NCBI GenBank assembly: GCA_034008185.1
Contig: CM067082.1
Span: 125,675,988-125,739,987, forward strand
Direction: 5' to 3'
Source of the DNA: Gorsachius magnificus
Taxonomy: Eukaryota > Chordata > Aves > Pelecaniformes > Ardeidae
DNA: 64,000 nt
Below the pieces are notes generated by a model. That model was not told the DNA's origin and did no database searches. It saw only the letters and a program-made list of their open reading frames with translations. A program made the position numbers and the translations under genes. Every line of letters starts with the position of its first letter. Within the stretch, counting starts at the first letter, position 1. Shown one piece after another: positions 37,247 through 53,200 of the stretch.

Positions 37247-38386
37247 ATGGGTTCAACAGGTGTACCAAACCGGCAATACATGAAGAGAGCTGTTGCCTAT
37301 ACACATAATTAATCTCAAAAACTGAGAAGCACTGCCAAGTTTTGTGAAAAAAAAAAAAGAAAAAAATAAGTAAAAGACGAGAAAACAAGAACAAGAAAAA
37401 GGGGGTAAACTCAGACTAAAGTACAAGTAAACAATTCAACCTGCATTCTACATATAGGTCCTCTATAAAGCCAACTTTATAAAAAATGAACTCAGAAACC
37501 TAGGATTAAAAAGATATAAAACAGATAACATTGTGCTTTGAAAGACTGAGGTTTTAGCTGAATAAAAACAGAACTGGAATTCATAGAGTTTAAGAGAGAA
37601 TGGGCAAGAGTAAACTGAAATTTTTAGGTTTTTAGCCTGTCTAAATTGACATTTTATCTGAATGGCAACAATTCATCCAACTTAATTCATCGTCAGTACA
37701 TCATTTGCAGGTCTCAAACACAGCTAGCAAAGAAACTAGAAAATACAAGGGTAGCCTCAAATACGTGAGGAAACACCCAGTGTTCTTTCACAGCAGCGTT
37801 GAAATACCATCATTAAAAAACACACTCAATTTACATCTCAGTGAGTCATTACATATGACCACCATTGCCTGGTTCACAAATAATTCTCAAGGAACAAAAT
37901 AAGCCACGCATATTAAAGACATTTGAAAGTAACAGTGTAACGAAAAGAGAAAGGGATTAGTATTAAACTCCCTTTGTATGCAAACTGGAGAAAAGGAAAC
38001 TCGGGGAAAGCCCAAATCCTGTTTACAACAGAGATATGACCAGAATTGCCTGTGAGGGGATCTAACTGCAGCCTCCTGACAAGGTCTGGCTGAGGAAGCC
38101 TTTCTCCATGAATAAGCCCGTACCACGAGCCCCATTTTGCAACCACGCAACAAAACAAACAAGGAATCCCGAACTAGATTTTGGCTGCGAGCATTTTGCT
38201 CTGGCTGGAGAGCAGCAGGCTGAAGGAGACAAACTCCCTGCAAAAAGCAGCAGCTGCTATCTAACAGACTATCGCAGAGATAATTATTTAACAACAACTC
38301 ACATAAAGCCCACAAAAATAAAAGTCACTTCTTTAAAGGAGGGGTGTATTTTCCTGGTCAGCCACTGAAGTCGGAGGCACGGAGCT

Positions 38387-38399
38387 GTCTCTTACCTGA
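38387..38399 (-). other. HDAC9: Splice donor of the HDAC9 exon
   Basis: On the minus strand the sequence is CTCAG|GTAAGAG, a near-consensus U2 donor (the plus strand shows CTCTTACCTGAG). The cut falls after the first base of a codon (phase 1), as needed for the SS(V) junction of HDAC9, where the next exon would supply the other two bases of a valine codon. Read-through into the intron meets an in-frame TGA after about a dozen codons. Confidence 0.9.
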
Positions 38400-38501
38400 G
38401 CTGATCATACTGTGCATTCTTTGCTGAGCCAAGAGCTGTTCACGTCCAGAAACCCCATCTGAGGAAAAACACGATTCACTCTCGTAAATTGTCTGCAGCA
38501 T
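38396..38501 (-). CDS. HDAC9: HDAC9 first coding exon (N terminus, 35 codons)
   Basis: This exon encodes the extreme N terminus of histone deacetylase 9, a class IIa deacetylase that binds MEF2 and represses its targets. Translation gives MLQTIYESES, then CFSSDGVSGR, then EQLLAQQRMH and SMISS, ending in codon phase 1 at a strong donor. The start MHSMISS is the N terminus of canonical HDAC9 as I know it; the longer start at 38501 matches a longer human isoform as I recall it. The DGVSGREQ block also aligns with PDGLSGRDQ near the HDAC4 N terminus, which supports real coding. Possible starts are 38501 (A at -3), 38417 (A at -3) and 38408. An in-frame TGA at 38540-38538 limits the frame upstream. 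The MEF2-binding, coiled-coil and deacetylase domains lie in later exons outside this window. The CpG island immediately upstream fits a first exon. Confidence 0.92.
38405..38458 (-). other. Out-of-frame ATG frame overlapping the HDAC9 starts
   Basis: Minus-strand ATGGGG at 38458 opens a 17-codon frame (MGFLDVNSSWLSKECTV) that ends in a TGA within the second internal HDAC9 methionine region. It is out of frame with HDAC9 and spans the MHSM start at 38417. The context is modest (G at +4, no purine at -3). Immediately upstream, TTTTTCCTCAG resembles a splice acceptor, see findings. Confidence 0.55.
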
Positions 38502-38520
38502 ATTCCAACCAGTCTGCACT

Positions 38521-38541
38521 TCAGCTACACGAGAGATTCAT
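38521..38541 (-). other. Short upstream ORF in HDAC9 5' leader
   Basis: Minus-strand ATG at 38541 followed by five codons and TGA (peptide MNLSCS), ending 19 bases before the long-form start at 38501. If the transcript begins in the CpG island, this frame is in the leader. Another minimal frame (MLKHC) lies at 38645-38628. Such frames can lower or redirect initiation; no effect is shown here. Confidence 0.6.
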
Positions 38542-39035
38542 CACTGCACTTGCACAGGGGCGTCGGGCACGACCCTCTGCGGTCCTACCTCCTCCAGCGA
38601 GGGTTGTAAGATAATACGCTTCGGCAATTAGCAATGTTTAAGCATTTGTACAAGTATCTATCGGGAGCGGGGGGAAACCCCCAAATCCACTCTCGGCAGC
38701 CCCTGGCTGCAGGAAGGGAGCCGTGAGCGCGTGGGGGGCTGTGCGCCGCAGAGTTTGAGCAGTTGCGTTCGGGCAGCCAACGGCAGGTGGAAGAAGAAAT
38801 GAAGAAATATCTCCGCGCTTCGGGCTTTCTGGCGGGGCGGGGGGGAACCACGGCCTCGTACAAACCATCAAACCGAATAAGCCACCTTTCCAGGGACCGG
38901 GAGGCCCCGGGGGTTTAGTCTGAATTACCCCAGCCCGGACCAGTGCTGCTGTCCCCGCGCCCCTCTCCTCTCCCTGCCCAGCTCTCCCCCGGCCGGGCGG
39001 CTGGGCGAAGTTGGCGGGAGCGGCTGCGATAACTC

Positions 39036-39091
39036 ATTTGCATTTGAATCGACACCCGCGTGGCCCAGCGGCGGCAGAAATAGAACAATGG
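39036..39091. promoter_or_regulatory. Octamer and SOX-like motifs in promoter core
   Basis: ATTTGCAT at 39036-39043 is an exact POU octamer. AACAATGG at 39084-39091 fits the SOX core. Both are in the AT-rich island core. Occupancy is inference only. Confidence 0.5.
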
Positions 39092-39101
39092 CCGGCCTGA
39101 G

Positions 39102-39111
39102 CCAAAAATAG
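39102..39111 (-). promoter_or_regulatory. MEF2-like site
   Basis: Minus strand CTATTTTTGG matches the MEF2 consensus YTAWWWWTAR at nine of ten positions; it also resembles a CArG box with one extra central base. HDAC9 protein represses MEF2, and MEF2 activation of the HDAC9 promoter has been reported in mammalian muscle, so a site here would fit a known feedback loop. The adjacent AGGTCA (39110-39115) is a nuclear-receptor half site. Confidence 0.55.
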
Positions 39112-39128
39112 GTCAAGCATGGCCGGGT

Positions 39129-39134
39129 GATTGG
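39129..39134 (-). promoter_or_regulatory. Inverted CCAAT box
   Basis: GATTGG on plus, CCAATC on minus, thus oriented toward the HDAC9 exon. NF-Y binds such boxes, usually 60-100 bases upstream of the start site. Confidence 0.5.
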
Positions 39135-39151
39135 AGCCTGCATTAATGCGT

Positions 39152-39178
39152 TTAAAAATACCACAGCAAACACAGCTG
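39152..39178. promoter_or_regulatory. Second MEF2-like site and E-box
   Basis: TTAAAAATAC (39152-39161) matches YTAWWWWTAR at nine of ten positions. ACCACAG (RUNX-like), GCAAACA (forkhead-like) and the E-box CAGCTG (39173-39178) follow within 20 bases. Clustered MEF2 and E-box motifs are typical of muscle regulatory DNA. Confidence 0.45.
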
Positions 39179-39269
39179 TCCAGTCTCTGTCTTTCAAACC
39201 GTCCGCCGCGCGGCCTCGAGCGTGATTAACCCCTTCCCCCTGCCCGGCCCGTTTCGGTGGGGAGAAGCC

Positions 39270-39292
39270 TGGGAGGGAGGGAGGGAGGGAGG
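39270..39292. repeat. (GGGA)n short tandem repeat
   Basis: Five to six GGGA/GGAG units within the CpG island. Runs of GGG at this spacing could form a G-quadruplex on the plus strand. Confidence 0.85.
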
Positions 39293-39660
39293 CAAGCAGG
39301 GAGTGGGACAGAAACGCTCCCCACCCGGGGCTCACGCCCCTCTCCCTCCTTGCCTTCCCCCGGAGAGTATTTTGTGAGAAGCGAGCAAAACACCACGGCT
39401 GCTGCATCGGCCCTAAAATAACGCCGGGAGGTTTTGCTGGCGATGTGGTTTCTGCCTCGCCCACGCGCAGCCATCCTGCTGTTCTATTTTTGCTGCCCGT
39501 TTCTCTGGCTACGCCGCAGTTGGCTTTGGCAGGGGAGCCGGGCTGCTGCCTGCTCCCTTGCTGGACCTGCAGCCGCCGTGGGAGAGGCGACTGCTGAAGC
39601 TACCAGGGCTGGGGGGGCGGGTGGGAGCAGAAGATGGGGGCAGACGTTAATGAGGGACTG

Positions 39661-42600
39661 GGTTCTGTGCGTGCAGTTATAAGCAGCCCTTCCATATTTA
39701 GCATCCTTGATAAAATTCTTACAGTAAGTCACCAGTTGTGGCACGGCACGTTAGGCACGGTTACCAACTATGCACTATTCGGTTGACTTGCTAAAATTTG
39801 GAGAGGGGCTGAGCATCTCGCACTTATTTTTAGAAGCATCAGGCAATTTGCACAGCGTCTTTCTCAGTGTTACAAGACGACGTGCTTTCAGAAGAGCAGC
39901 TTTTGACGGCGTATCAGATGACAGCATCCTGCTCCTCTGTGCCTTGGCAGGTTTCACGCATGCTATGTGAAGTTTATTTTTCATAACAATATTTCAAAAG
40001 TTGCATATCTTGTTTGCTGATTAATATATCTACACGGAGATAAGTTTCATTTCACTGTTGCAGATGGTACTGTACTTCCCTGGGTCCTGCTCTGCCTCAG
40101 AGCACTTGTTACACAGGTGACCAAAGCCCGTCACTACTTACACATATGGTACAGCAGCCTGACCACTCACCTACCGAAATTCTGAGTCCCCTTCCGTGTC
40201 CCTGCTCTAGGGGAGCAACAGCAGCCACAGGGACGTGATTCCTCACTGTAATCAAGAGGCCAATACAGAGGTCATCTCAGAGCTTTCCAGAAATCCACCA
40301 AATTCTCAACTATCTCTAGCACCATTTGCTAGTGAAGACTTCAAGAATCTACCCAGTACCTGAGGCTCGGTTCTGCCTTTTGGCAAAGGTCTGCTCTTCA
40401 ACTCACATGACAGATTGCAGCCAAGGGCAATTTTTTTTTTTTTTTTAAACTTCTCACAACTGTGTTAATGAAGAAAAGATTAACAATAACAAAGTACTGT
40501 GACATTCCCGTGATGTTTGGACACTCGATGGCACCTGGGAGGTCTGTGGCTCAATCTCCACCACCATCCAAACCCTTTGCTTCCTCCAGGTGCCAAATGA
40601 CTTGGGTCCTGTGGAGAGTTAGGATCTGTCCCCTGGACAGATGGAGAACACCGCAGCTGCCAATGGGGTTTTCCCTACAGGATCCTCAAGTTAGCACCTA
40701 TCACCGCTATACACCCCCTTCTCCTTGCCTTCTCTCTTCTGTACCCCCAAGTGGTGAAGCTCTGCAGACAGCATACGCCCAACTCTGCAAGGGGCAAGGC
40801 CATGGGTGGCGGCAGCCCAGCGAGGGGTAGGGTGTTACAGCGCAAGGCAGGGGAGGAACATCACACGTACCATCGTACTATTCACAGCCGACAACTCGGT
40901 ACTGCGAACATTTTTCTCTTGAAAGCAAAAATACCCAAATCTTTAGTGGGAAATATGTGTCACTTTGAGGGCGCAGGGCAGAAGACGTTTAACACGAGTG
41001 CAAGGGAGATCACCAGTAGAAATAGAAATCTTCTCTAATGCAGAAAAAGCTTTTTATAGACAGAAGTAAATAAAAAAGTTGAACTGCTTATGCCCTTGAG
41101 CCAACCAGAACATGACCCTGTTTAGCAATTCAGCGCCTCAAAATAATCAAGTACTCGTATTACAGGGGAACACTGGAGGAATAAGTTAAAAACAGGTCAG
41201 AACACGGAAAATGCTGGAGTGTGGGATCCTGGTATTAGGTATTCATACGTGTTTAAAACTTCTTCTATATGCAGCTGCATTTTTAAAGATAGCATTCACA
41301 GCTCTAACTGACTTCAAATACTTCAGTAACTATATAAAAGCAAACCGTTTTCAAGAGCAGAAAATGTACATTCAGATATTTAGCTGCGTTTTTAACTTTG
41401 GCGTACGTATTTTAAACTGACAGACATATGAACTATCCTATGTTAGCTAATTCACAGAGCATAATAACTACAGCATTGTGCTTTATATTTTAGATTATAT
41501 ATAAAAATTGTATCAAAATACTTTACTTATGAAGTCAGCCACCCCAAAGTTAGGGCTTTTACAACCAGAATTCTTCCGACTTGCTTCAATGTATTATGGG
41601 CCTACTTTGGTACATGCTTAGCTTTAAAACACGTGTGTAAATCCATCTCTTTTCAACATAATATTTAAGCACATGCTCAAATTCTATTGATCACAATAGA
41701 ATTTAAACATGTAGTTAAACATTTTGCTGAGTCAGCCCAGCCTTTAACTGCACAATCGCATGAGTTTAAATAGCTCCTTTAGAGTCCCACAGGGGAAGGA
41801 TAAAGGGTTCACGCCTGAAGAAAATCTGGTTTTTATTTTTAAAGCTATGGATGTTATGAGGTGACATTTTCATACAGGAACATGAGGTTTTTTGTTCTGT
41901 TTTTTTCAAATGCATTTCCTAAACTCTGAGAACTTTAATGACACTGGAGGTAAGAGTAAACTGTTGAAATGATTTAGCACTGCTGAGGTGACTCCAAATG
42001 CAATCAGCGACTTTATAGAAAATGTAAGGCACGTTAGTAGCACTAAGATCTCATTACTGGGGTTTCACAATGTGTTTCTCTTATTTGCCTTCTGAGTTGC
42101 TAAAAACAAATAAATGTAAGGAAATTAAATCTGGAAACCGCATTACTGCAACATTAAGGCTGAGAAATTAAGCACTCAAATTAGAAAGAGCGAAGTTTTC
42201 TACTGCATTATTAACTCTGCAACACTATAATTAAGTAGCACTTTTCTTACTTTCCTTGTTAAGTACAAACAGTGTATTACTGTTTGTTTTTAGCATATCC
42301 CATTTCTCACTCATGTTATTCTGGAGCATAGCCTTCATTAATATTAATAGCTTAGTTTCGACTTTTGCAGTTTTCTTACCAGTAAATGAATTCTTGCATA
42401 GATTATTCTGCCATATTTCTCAATTGCATCATATAAATATTACATACAAAATGAAATAAAGATATGTTCTCTAGCTTCTAGTCGTATGCTTAAATGAGGA
42501 TACATCAGTCTTACAAGTGTCCCACCCAACTTTCCTTCAGCCCCCTTATCATTTGGCAAGCATTCTGTGAAAAGCATCAAGGAGTAACACGCATCAATAT

Positions 42601-49141: not shown

Positions 49142-50213
49142 TGTGGTGGGCTGACCCTGGCTGGATGCCAGATGCCCAACAAAGCCACTCTATCAGTCCC
49201 CCTCCTCAGCTGGACAGGGGAGAGAAAATATAACAAAAGGCTCATGGGTAGAGATAAGGACACGGAGAGATCGTTCACCAGTTACTGTCACAGGCAAACC
49301 AGACTCAACTTGGAGAAATTAGTTTAATTTATTACCAAAAAAGTCAGAGTAGGATAATGAGAAATAAAAATTGAACCTTAAAACACTTCCCCCCCACCCC
49401 TCCCTTCTTCCCAGGCTTAACTTTACTCCTGATTTTCTCTACCTCCTCCCCACCAGTGGCACAGGGGGATGGGGAATGGGAGTTGCAGTCAGTTCATCAA
49501 ACGCTGTCTCTGCCGCTCCTTACTCCTCAGGGGGAGGACTCCTCACACTCTGCCCCTGCTCCAGTGTGGGTCCTTCCCATGGGCCACAGCTCCTCATGAA
49601 CTTTCCCAGTGTGGGTCTCTTCCATGGGGTGCAGTCCCTCAGGAGCAGACTGCTCCAGCGTGGGTCCCCCGTGGGGTCACCAGCTCTGCCAGCAAACCTG
49701 TTCCAGTGTGGGCTCCTCTCTCCACAGGTCCGGCCGGCCAGCATGGGCTCCCCACAAGGGTCACAATCTCCTTTGGGCACCCACCCGCTCCAGCGTGGGG
49801 TCCTCCCGGGCTGCAGGTGGAGATCTGCTCCAGTGGACCTTCATAGGCTGCAGGGGGACAGCCTGCCTCTCTATGGGCTGCACCAGGGGCTGCAGGGGAA
49901 TCTCTGCTCTGGTGTCTGGAGCACCTCATCCACCTCCTTCTGCACTGACCTTGGTGTCTGCAGGGCTGTTTCACATATTCTCACTCCTCTCTCTGCTGCT
50001 ATTGTCTGGGGTTTTTTTCCCCCTTCTTAACTACATTATCCCAGAGGCCCTACCACCACCACTGACAGGCTTGGCCTTGGCCAGCAGCAGGTCTGCCTTG
50101 GAGCCGGCTGGCATGGGCTCTATCAGACACAGGGGAATCTTCTGGCAGCTTCTCACAGAAGCCACACCTGCAGCCCCCCCACTACCAAAACCTTGCCACG
50201 CAAATCCAATACA
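49142..50213 (-). mobile_element. Solo LTR of an avian endogenous retrovirus
   Basis: A 1072-base element with TG...CA ends on the minus strand (starts TGTATTGGAT at 50213, ends CCCACCACA at 49142). I recognise the family as a high-copy avian LTR but cannot name it with certainty. Flanks are GTACT (49137-49141) and GTACC (50214-50218), a 5-base target duplication with one mismatch; five bases would suit ERVL-type elements. On the minus strand an AATAAA polyadenylation signal lies at 49333-49328. No primer-binding site follows the 3' end and no polypurine tract precedes the 5' end, so the internal region is gone: a solo LTR from recombination. Frames of up to 219 codons on plus are GC-rich shadows, not genes. 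Confidence 0.88.
49561..49800. repeat. Tandem-like CCAGYGTGGG units inside the LTR
   Basis: The word CCAG(T/C)GTGGG or a one-base variant recurs at 49561, 49606, 49655, 49703, 49738 and 49790, spacing 35-52 bases, with diverged intervening sequence. This is an internal minisatellite of the LTR and is expected to vary in copy number between copies. Confidence 0.85.
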
Positions 50214-53200
50214 GTACCAAACAACGCATTTATGGAACATCTAAATCAAACCAGCTACTGCAGCAGTCTTGTCACCGCTGCACAGCTGATCAGTAGAATG
50301 ACATTTGCCTGGATGGGTTGCAGGGCAACACCACGTTAAGGAGTTCCTTATGTGCTCCAACTCCTCTCCTGTCCTTGTCCAGCATGGTAAGGTTTTATGT
50401 ATGTTCATTCATTCACTCTAAAGGAAATCAGATTACTTCTCCAATGCAGCTCAAAAAGCACAAGCAACAAAAGCAAGACTTCAAAAGCATAAGCAAGAAG
50501 TGCACAAACTTTTTATTGTCATGAGGTCCTCTGTCTCATCAAGCCACAAGCACAGTGACAGGAGTTCAAAGTACTCCTGACAGTGCTATACTACCCCAGA
50601 ACTCTCTTCAGCAGTGGCATGACAGGTATTCAAGAGGACTTGCATCTTGAAGAGACTGATAAATCACAGAAAACCTATATGGACAAGCCAGTATACATAA
50701 TCAACATAACTGACTGCCCAAACTAGCCAACATCATTTAAAGATACACCCAAAGTCAACAGCAGATGGGAAAGGGGAAACAAAGGGGTAAAAGTCTTAGA
50801 ACTCCATAAATGAAGGGGTTTTTAAAAAACTCAAGTTTCTAACACTTTGTAGTCATGATGGTATAGATCTAAACTGCTTTAGTTAAATAAACAATTAAGG
50901 TCTCCTTTGAAAAGGAGAGCAGTATTCTTCAATTAGTTCCTATACAGTACAAACTGCACTTCCTGATGATGCAGAAAATGGAATATTGGCTTAAGTAATT
51001 TCTACAAGACTTTGGCTGATGCCTTTACTTTTCATAAAATTTCAGACTAAATGTAGGCCACCTTAAGACTTAGACTAGCTAACAGACTCTGTTTCCTCCA
51101 CATCTTTCAATGCTCATGTGCAAAACTCCCCCACCAGCGTGTAATTTTCCTGTCCTAGAGGAGGCAGCAATCGGAGCGTGCCATTTGTGCAGTGACAGGG
51201 CAAAGGGACGTTCCTAACTCTGCTGGCGTCACAGCAGAGGCTGATAAACAATCCATATCATTTGGCCACCTCATTTGATAAGCTTTACATTTATTTTTAT
51301 CATCTGCACAAGAGAAAAATGATAGACAGTAAGGCTTGTTATATGTTATACTGCTCCACACGCAGACGTGAAGAGAACTAATTTTGCCCATCATTACAAT
51401 TAATAATACAGTTTTCAAATTTTCACTTCGGAGACAAGATATGATAATATCCTATCTGAGCTGAAAGAAGATTGAATCCTTTGTCCTCTTGAAAAGTACA
51501 GCATCATGACACAATTTCACATACAACAGGGCAAACCAGCCTGAGCACGTCTCGTGCCGTTCACTGTCATGCGGAGCCAATAATCTATTTCTGACTTGCA
51601 CGGATAGCCTGTTCCCATATTTGACAAGGTAACATTTGTCCCTCTACCTGAAGCAATGTAATTCTTCACTGGCAGAAAGTGAGACCTGCAGCAGTCTTAG
51701 TCTGGCAGTACCAAGAAGGAAATTTGCATTTCATTCACATACAGAAAGGAAATACCTGCTGATATATACAAAACCCTAGTGGTGTCTCCTTTTCCTATGG
51801 TTACACTGAAAAAGATCATGTGAAGTTTTTTACATCTATGTATTCATCATGTATTTCTTAAAAGTGCCCATGAGGGATGGTTAGTGAATGTTTAAAAAAA
51901 AAAAAAAATAATAAAAGAAGGTCTAATTGGTTGTTAGGGCACCCAGGATTTAGCCCTCTTGAGCTGAAGTCACCGATCACAGATTTCCAGTGATCAGAGA
52001 CCCAATAACACTCCGTGTTCCAGGTCCCAATCTGTCAAATGGGAATAAACAGCAGTATATTTCACATTGCTATCTAGAGGACAAGCGCTTTAAGGGTGCT
52101 CAAACATCGTGGAAGTGGAGAATGTACACTTTCTTTAGGCCAAAATATTTTTGCCAAACTACCTCTACAGTGCACGGTCAGTCTGGAACTGGTAAGCTGT
52201 GCCCTTCCACAGGGACTGGCAACACTCTGATTACTATCCATGACTGTCAATGCTTTTTAAAGCCCATATTTCAGATAGCTGATTATTACCAAAATAAAAT
52301 TGCATGTGATTTCCCCAGACCACAAGAGTAGCTGGTTTTTCCTCAAAAGTTAGAGACAAGCACAAAAAAGCCTATGCTTGCTTTCCTATTTCAAAAGCTT
52401 TTTGTTTTTACCTGTGTTCCCTTAACTTGTCCTTCTCTTCAGAACATTTTACGTGGTTCTGTAAAAAGAACATTGCCACTTGCAAAAAAACCCACGGCTA
52501 TAAAAAGTTTATGTCTCTCTCTAGGTTCCCAGGCTTATAACTTAGAGATATTTCCATTCAGAAGGAGAAACAAGACAGCTTAGCAACAGTTGTGGTAAGC
52601 AGTCAATCTCTCTCATGTAGACACTAATTGCTTGATATTAAAGAAAAAACTTGTCTACTTCAGTGCAAGATAATGCATTAAAAAAAACCCCTAAAACCCA
52701 AACACATGCCTTTGGGCAAACATTTCTGTTGTACATTGATGAATTAATGAGATCAACTGAAGGACTTTTTCCTCCATTCAGCTGAAGCTGTGGTCATACA
52801 CACCTGCTCCCTTTATTTCATCTCCAGCACAGACCTGGCATGGTCAGCCAGTTTTTGGTCTATTTTTGGCAGGAGGATATTTGAACAATGATTGACCACG
52901 ATAAACTGCCTCTGCTCCAGTCAACATTAAACTCGCCACTCTTCTTTATACCCTTCCCATGAGTCTGGCTCACTTGCAAATAGGGGTAAATTGCTTCTGT
53001 AGAATTTTCCTGTTTAAACTGACCAGAAGAGCAGTCTTTTTATTGTTGTGGGGCCTGTGTTTATAAATGTCACCCTTTCCTTCTTCACTTACTAGTCCCA
53101 CCAAAAAGGATGGTGTTTTTCAAATGAAAACTAGTAACTGATGACCATTTATTCTTCATGTTTCCTTTCTTGCTGTTAGTTTCGCTTCAGTTACTGAAGA

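What the first reader, a model, noticed from the sequence alone, without database searches (positions are those of the whole stretch)
38396..38501. HDAC9 N-terminal exon anchors an otherwise anonymous window
Seen: a 35-codon minus-strand frame ending in phase 1 at CTCAG|GTAAGAG, next to a CpG island. Known: HDAC9 begins MHSMISS and HDAC4 has PDGLSGRDQ near its N terminus. The fit of both ends, the splice phase and the island together make chance very unlikely. It is too short for a standard ORF list, so it would be missed by length-based annotation.
Basis: partly seen in the sequence, partly recalled or inferred. Interest (0 to 1): 0.75.

Follow-up and report, generated by a model that had tools for sequence, protein, structure and literature searches.

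The report
Bird HDAC9 alternative first exon
This is the start of the bird HDAC9 gene, an exon already annotated in many animals; less expected is that its first 14 amino acids overlap a splice site and recur almost unchanged in proteins of the sister gene HDAC5 in sharks, bony fishes and turtles.

Summary
Window 38501..38396 (minus) encodes MLQTIYESESCFSSDGVSGREQLLAQQRMHSMISS and ends at a phase-1 donor (TCAG|GTAAGAG). All 35 residues are identical to annotated HDAC9 N-termini of many birds (26 of the 120 proteins listed). The rest of HDAC9 lies downstream on the same strand of the same contig: 21 co-linear places over about 225 kb. The exon joins exon 2 in frame (ISS|VDVKSE) across a 53.6-kb intron and overlaps a CpG island. 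It is annotated in birds, mammals, amphibians, coelacanth and sturgeon, so it is not a discovery.

In 48 of 120 listed models the same exon is joined from D15 to other N-termini, which implies the acceptor TGTTTTTCCTCAG inside the coding sequence. It is therefore probably a hybrid first/internal exon. Its 14-residue 5' extension recurs at 13-14 of 14 identity in 15 HDAC5-type proteins of sharks, a chimaera, bony fishes, turtles and a caecilian, so it probably predates the HDAC5/HDAC9 split. No RNA data could be examined. Low interest as an exon, moderate as an evolutionary puzzle.

The parts
38396..38501 (-). Coding part of HDAC9 alternative first exon (35 codons, MLQTIYESESCFSSDGVSGREQLLAQQRMHSMISS, plus 1 base)
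   Evidence: 35/35 identical to bird HDAC9 isoforms; spliced in silico to exon 2 in frame
38396..38458 (-). Internal-exon form of the same exon (63 nt, phase 1 to 1, ATGGGG...CTCAG)
   Evidence: 48 of 120 listed proteins join other N-termini at D15; junction residue D 47, N 1; use in this bird inferred
38459..38471 (-). 3' splice site TGTTTTTCCTCAG inside the coding sequence (codes C-F-S-S and first base of D)
   Evidence: sequence; by a crude home-made score 252 of 9166 AGs in the window, itself included, score as high or higher
38484..38488 (-). Branch-point-like TTTAC, its A (38485) 27 nt before the internal exon's first base
   Evidence: pattern yTnAy, only match in the 45 nt before the AG; function inferred
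38394..38395 (-). 5' splice donor GT of a 53,615-nt intron
   Evidence: TCAG|GTAAGAG; exon 2 starts at G000 contig C2:125660767
38415..38417 (-). Internal ATG of MHSMISS, start codon of the form usually called canonical HDAC9 (recalled)
   Evidence: sequence; name from recall
38371..39770 (.). CpG island, probable promoter of this first exon (GC 0.588, CpG o/e 0.73)
   Evidence: by the strict criterion (38341-39890) the only island in the window plus 40 kb further upstream; promoter role inferred
38521..38541 (-). Short upstream ORF ATG-AAT-CTC-TCG-TGT-AGC-TGA, out of frame, if transcription starts above it
   Evidence: sequence; function inferred only

Best explanation
The stretch is the coding part of an alternative first exon of HDAC9 in a bird. 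Transcription most likely starts in the overlapping CpG island, runs on the minus strand through MLQTIYESESCFSS..., and the exon is spliced at TCAG|GTAAGAG over a 53.6-kb intron to the exon beginning VDVKSE (glutamine-rich, MEF2-binding region). This gives an HDAC9/MITR with a 28-residue extension before the MHSMISS start. In transcripts from promoters further upstream, the acceptor inside the exon (TGTTTTTCCTCAG|ATGGGG) is used instead, so only the last 63 nt are included behind a different N-terminus. The exon is thus a hybrid first/internal exon whose first 14 codons double as branch point, pyrimidine tract and AG of the upstream intron. Shown here: peptide identity, co-linear gene, matching phase, the acceptor sequence, other N-termini joined at D15 in other species' protein models. 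Inferred: start of transcription in the island, internal use in this bird, the branch point, and that the 14-residue cap does something in the protein.
For: 35/35 identity to HDAC9 isoforms of many birds, 26 of 120 listed; E 7e-16 in the window. 21 co-linear HDAC9 places on the same strand of contig C2, including catalytic-domain exons. Exon 1 to exon 2 reads in frame, phase 1. CpG island overlaps the exon. 72 of 120 listed models start MLQ and 48 have another N-terminus joined at the same residue. Among 73 MLQ rows (72 listed proteins and the window itself) residues 12-14 vary little: F 70, L 2, V 1; S 71, P 1, F 1; S 73; the L, P and F changes can keep pyrimidines, which is inferred from the code, not seen in DNA. 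A catalogue of human exons used both as terminal and as internal exons exists (PMC10256964, passages seen).
Against: No RNA was available for this bird, so neither the transcription start nor either splice use is shown in this species. Many of the protein models are automatic predictions. None of the other first exons sought (MSSTTP, MSYxxETMYxLT and others) was found in the window or 40 kb further upstream, so internal use rests on other species. By a crude score the acceptor is good but not outstanding (97th percentile). Two AGs lie between the branch-point-like site and the acceptor. V12 (P0058) and C13 (P0126, a spadefoot toad) must lose a pyrimidine in the tract.
Confidence: 0.9

Rival explanations
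1. It is only an internal 63-nt HDAC9 exon (38458..38396); the MLQ... start is the 3' end of an intron that gene predictors read through from unspliced or partly spliced RNA.
For: An acceptor and a branch-point-like site are there; 48 of 120 listed models use only the part from D15 on.
Against: MLQTIYESESCFSS is 13-14 of 14 identical in human, coelacanth, lungfish and sturgeon HDAC9 and in 15 HDAC5-type proteins, not expected of an incidental read-through; a CpG island covers it.
Confidence: 0.08
2. The exon is as described, but its 14-codon extension is conserved because of DNA/RNA signals (splice site, promoter, translation control), and the extra peptide has no function of its own.
For: The extension overlaps a branch-point-like site, pyrimidine tract and AG, and its region lies in a CpG island.
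Against: The ESES part between branch-point-like site and tract is conserved as amino acids between HDAC5-type proteins and HDAC9, with mostly S/T and E/D exchanges at residues 8-9. DNA of relatives could not be compared, so this is weak.
Confidence: 0.2
3. Retrocopy, pseudogene or chance resemblance.
For: The frame is short (35 codons).
Against: Intact donor, intact frame, 35/35 identity, co-linear HDAC9 exons on the same strand downstream.
Confidence: 0.005

Closest known systems
HDAC9 isoforms starting MLQTIYES(E/D)SCFSS (NCBI/UniProt records of birds, mammals, amphibians, coelacanth)
   Same: Same 35-residue first exon, same junction to VDVKSE; 35/35 in 26 of 120 listed, 33/35 in human P0043
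   Different: Nothing of substance; this is one more species
HDAC5-type proteins containing MLQTIYE(S/T)ESCFSS (sharks, chimaera, bony fishes, turtles, caecilian; P0124, P0127-P0140)
   Same: Extension 13-14 of 14 identical in 15 of 15, followed by the homologous D(G/A)(V/A)S exon
   Different: 13 of the 15 have 12 residues starting MLL before MLQ; one turtle row (P0139) starts at MLQ and the chimaera row (P0140) has another 12 residues. In the window two in-frame TGA codons lie 12 codons upstream. Later residues diverge
Hybrid first/internal exons (HIT exons, EMATS hybrid first exons)
   Same: One exon used as first exon in some transcripts and as internal exon in others; about 100,000 inter-tissue hybrid exons claimed in human (PMC10256964, passage seen)
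   Different: Here the extra first-exon sequence is coding and recurs in a paralogue; whether that is unusual was not tested

Membership tests
HDAC9 (class IIa histone deacetylase gene) | N-terminal exon encodes the HDAC9 MHSMISS block | tested here: met
   35/35 identity to annotated HDAC9
HDAC9 (class IIa histone deacetylase gene) | Followed in cis, same strand and phase, by the VDVKSE...MEF2-binding exon | tested here: met
   exon 2 at C2:125660767, in-frame joint ISS-VDVKSE
HDAC9 (class IIa histone deacetylase gene) | Deacetylase-domain exons downstream in order | tested here: met
   21 places in order, between query residues 1 and 963 of chicken P0122, all minus strand
HDAC9 (class IIa histone deacetylase gene) | Synteny with TWIST1 | not tested
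   the search did not complete
HDAC9 (class IIa histone deacetylase gene) | Transcript containing this exon in this bird | not testable with these tools
   no RNA data held
Hybrid first/internal exon | Acceptor inside the exon and models using only the part behind it | tested here: met
   TGTTTTTCCTCAG at 38471-38459; 48 of 120 listed models, from other species
Hybrid first/internal exon | Both uses seen in RNA of the same species | not testable with these tools
   no RNA data; the upstream first exons sought were not found within 40 kb beyond the window
Hybrid first/internal exon | Promoter at the 5' side of the exon | tested here: inconclusive
   CpG island present; no 5'-end data

The most novel reading that the evidence does not exclude
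A 14-residue N-terminal cap (MLQTIYESESCFSS) arose before the vertebrate genome duplications and was kept almost unchanged in both HDAC5 and HDAC9 while overlapping the branch point and acceptor of an intron. Class IIa HDACs would then carry an undescribed, promoter-switched N-terminal motif that changes where or how the repressor acts or how long it lasts.
Probability: 0.4. Interest if true: 0.5.

Novelty: already known. Interest (0 to 1): 0.25.

Why it matters
It places the window at the 5' part of HDAC9 and shows that a 35-codon exon can be read correctly from raw sequence. Beyond that, a coding stretch that is also a splice acceptor and is shared by two genes that separated early in vertebrates is a testable case of dual constraint. 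If the cap has a function, class IIa HDAC activity would be partly set by promoter choice.

Tried and rejected
The PDB sequence search gave only one chance match (PRDM9, E = 3), and Pfam gave nothing for the 35 residues. Rfam at the gathering threshold gave no RNA family in the window. Pfam on 8 of the 47 ORFs of 100 aa or more in the window gave nothing. Comparing the exon with recalled HDAC4/5/9 N-termini gave only weak hits, settled. A hit of recalled HDAC5 at 39366-39205 (E 0.003, low-complexity filter off) contains a stop and was not hit by the six HDAC9 proteins; rejected as chance. Other first exons of HDAC9 were sought in the window and 40 kb beyond: none found; very short ones could be missed. 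MEF2-like sites near the exon were considered, but the exact consensus occurs 23 times in the window, so one at 39824 means little. Retrocopy rejected.

Literature: the listings showed no paper whose title or start of abstract deals with this exon (one search showed 20 of 62 papers, 12 of 15, 7 of 9); one search found 0 papers containing the peptide strings. Most listed papers were not opened. PMC9359700 (passages) names HDAC9 only for its lowered expression. Petrie 2003 (cited in PMC8516780) was not looked up; the HDAC9-MEF2 promoter paper (recalled DOI) is not held. (TWIST1 enhancers in the HDAC9 locus) was seen as a listing only and not used.

Not achieved: HDAC5, HDAC4 and HDAC7 of this bird could not be searched, nor TWIST1 synteny, because the genome search answered only once.

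Full report
OBSERVATION. The minus strand of 38501..38396 reads ATG plus 34 codons, one further base, then GTAAGAG. The translation is MLQTIYESESCFSSDGVSGREQLLAQQRMHSMISS. Two in-frame TGA codons stand 12 codons upstream of the ATG. The exon overlaps the one CpG island of at least 400 bp in the window, 38371-39770, GC 0.588, CpG observed/expected 0.73 (shorter ones were not printed). By the strict criterion (38341-39890) it is the only island in the window and in 40 kb further upstream.

IDENTITY. A protein search whose query was the window exon joined to recalled human HDAC9 (residues 1-60 scored) returned 988 proteins at E <= 0.001 among 1,048 candidates, 120 of them listed. Nearly all listed names are histone deacetylase or histone deacetylase 9. 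Of these 120, 72 begin MLQ and 26 are identical to the window over all 35 residues; these include turkey, grouse, penguins, a parrot and songbirds. Human P0043 differs at 2 of 35 residues. The match is not circular: the first 35 residues of the query are the window's own.

GENE IN CIS. The window lies at G000:C2:125675988-125739987, in a 1.176-Gb assembly of 36 contigs. I fetched the 200 kb that follow in the gene's direction (1,608 N in the 264 kb with the window, none in the window) and compared chicken HDAC9 P0122 by tblastn. It gave 22 rows, two of which overlap at exon 2, hence 21 places. All are on the minus strand and in order between residues 1 and 963, over about 225 kb, into the deacetylase domain. 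Some rows run into intron at their ends. The exon ends in phase 1. Exon 2 starts TG GAT GTA at C2:125660767 after TTGTTTTCTTCCCACAG, and the joint reads ISS-VDVKSE in frame; the intron is 53,615 nt. That settles the identity.

A HYBRID EXON. 48 of the 120 listed models do not begin MLQ. They have other N-termini (MSSTTP, MSYTRETMYTLT, MMSSPVQS and others), all 48 joined at the residue that is D15 here: D in 47, N in 1. That is what a phase-1 junction before AT predicts. In the window the sequence before that point is TGTTTTTCCTCAG|ATGGGG, a good acceptor by eye; by a crude score 252 of 9,166 AGs in the window, itself included, do as well or better. A branch-point-like TTTAC has its A 27 nt before the exon (38485), with two AGs in between. 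The internal form is 63 nt, phase 1 to 1. So codons 1-14 of the first-exon form are also the 3' end of an intron. None of the other first exons sought was found in the window or 40 kb beyond it, so internal use in this bird is inferred. Exons used as first and as internal exons are a known class (passages of PMC10256964, and PMC10767810).

AGE OF THE EXTENSION. Searching with a paddlefish HDAC9-like protein (P0067) and then a shark protein (P0124) brought 15 proteins (P0124, P0127-P0140) carrying MLQTIYE(S/T)ESCFSS before D(G/A)(V/A)S. Eight of the 15 are named HDAC5 in the records (P0124, P0127, P0131-P0134, P0137, P0138); the other seven bear no paralogue name. By comparison with recalled HDAC4/5/9 N-termini, 12 of the 15 score best as HDAC5; the chimaera P0140 is a near tie (HDAC5 91.7, HDAC9 90.9 bits); and the two shark proteins P0124 and P0127 score higher against HDAC9 (115) than HDAC5 (100) despite their name. 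The sharks' assignment therefore rests on the record names and on features they share with the other HDAC5s but not HDAC9 in the alignment, such as the three extra residues after GREQ. Across 13 of these 15 (P0129 and P0135 not aligned), identity to chicken HDAC9 is 13-14 of 14 in the extension, 4-8 of 8 in residues 15-22, 2-8 of 13 in 23-35, 5-16 of 30 in 36-65, and 41-46 of 55 in 66-120. The set was collected by shared words with this very block, so its high identity is partly selection; its presence at the same junction in bony-fish, turtle and caecilian HDAC5 is not. 13 of the 15 have 12 residues starting MLL before MLQ. HDAC4, 5, 7 and 9 are described as products of 2R (PMC3238295, passages seen).

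MECHANISM. Most likely (0.9 for the exon and its use, less for function): a CpG-island promoter gives HDAC9 with a 28-residue extension before MHSMISS; upstream promoters skip the first 14 codons by using the inner acceptor. A review says exon 1 of human HDAC9 is untranslated and coding runs from exon 2 (PMC8516780, passage seen); the MLQ form would be an isoform beside that one. The same review says MEF2 factors bind the proximal HDAC9 promoter; whether that is this promoter was not tested. Why the extension is kept (peptide, or DNA/RNA signals) is open. Most variants at residues 12-13 (L, P, F) could keep the pyrimidine tract, but V12 in P0058 and C13 in P0126 cannot fully.

VERDICT. The exon is already annotated in many vertebrates, so novelty is low. 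The overlap of a coding cap with a splice acceptor and its sharing with HDAC5 is the one point a specialist might not know; I found no paper on it in the searches listed under Tried and rejected, which do not prove absence.

Noticed in passing
P0124, P0127-P0138 (HDAC5-type proteins): A 12-residue stretch starting MLL precedes MLQTIYE in 13 of 15 such proteins; in the window's HDAC9 the matching position has 12 open codons after two TGA, with no evident similarity.
   Followed up: partly
P0112, P0114 (hamster) and P0108 (stork): Alternative HDAC9 N-termini MSSPVQP|DGV and MSSTTP|DGV resemble the start of HDAC4, MSSQSHP|DGL (HDAC4 recalled), suggesting a second first exon older than the paralogues.
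   Followed up: no
window 38521-38541 (-): Six-codon upstream ORF ending 19 bases before the MLQ start codon; possible translation control if transcripts start above it.
   Followed up: no
window 39036 and 39102: Octamer ATTTGCAT (39036, 9 copies in the window) and CCAAAAATAG (39102, 3 in the window), MEF2/SRF-like with a mismatch, inside the CpG island; counts, not significant alone.
   Followed up: partly
window 49368-50244 (+): Long open frames (220 and 214 aa) that resemble, from recall, the translated CR1-type repeats common in bird genomes; no Pfam match.
   Followed up: partly
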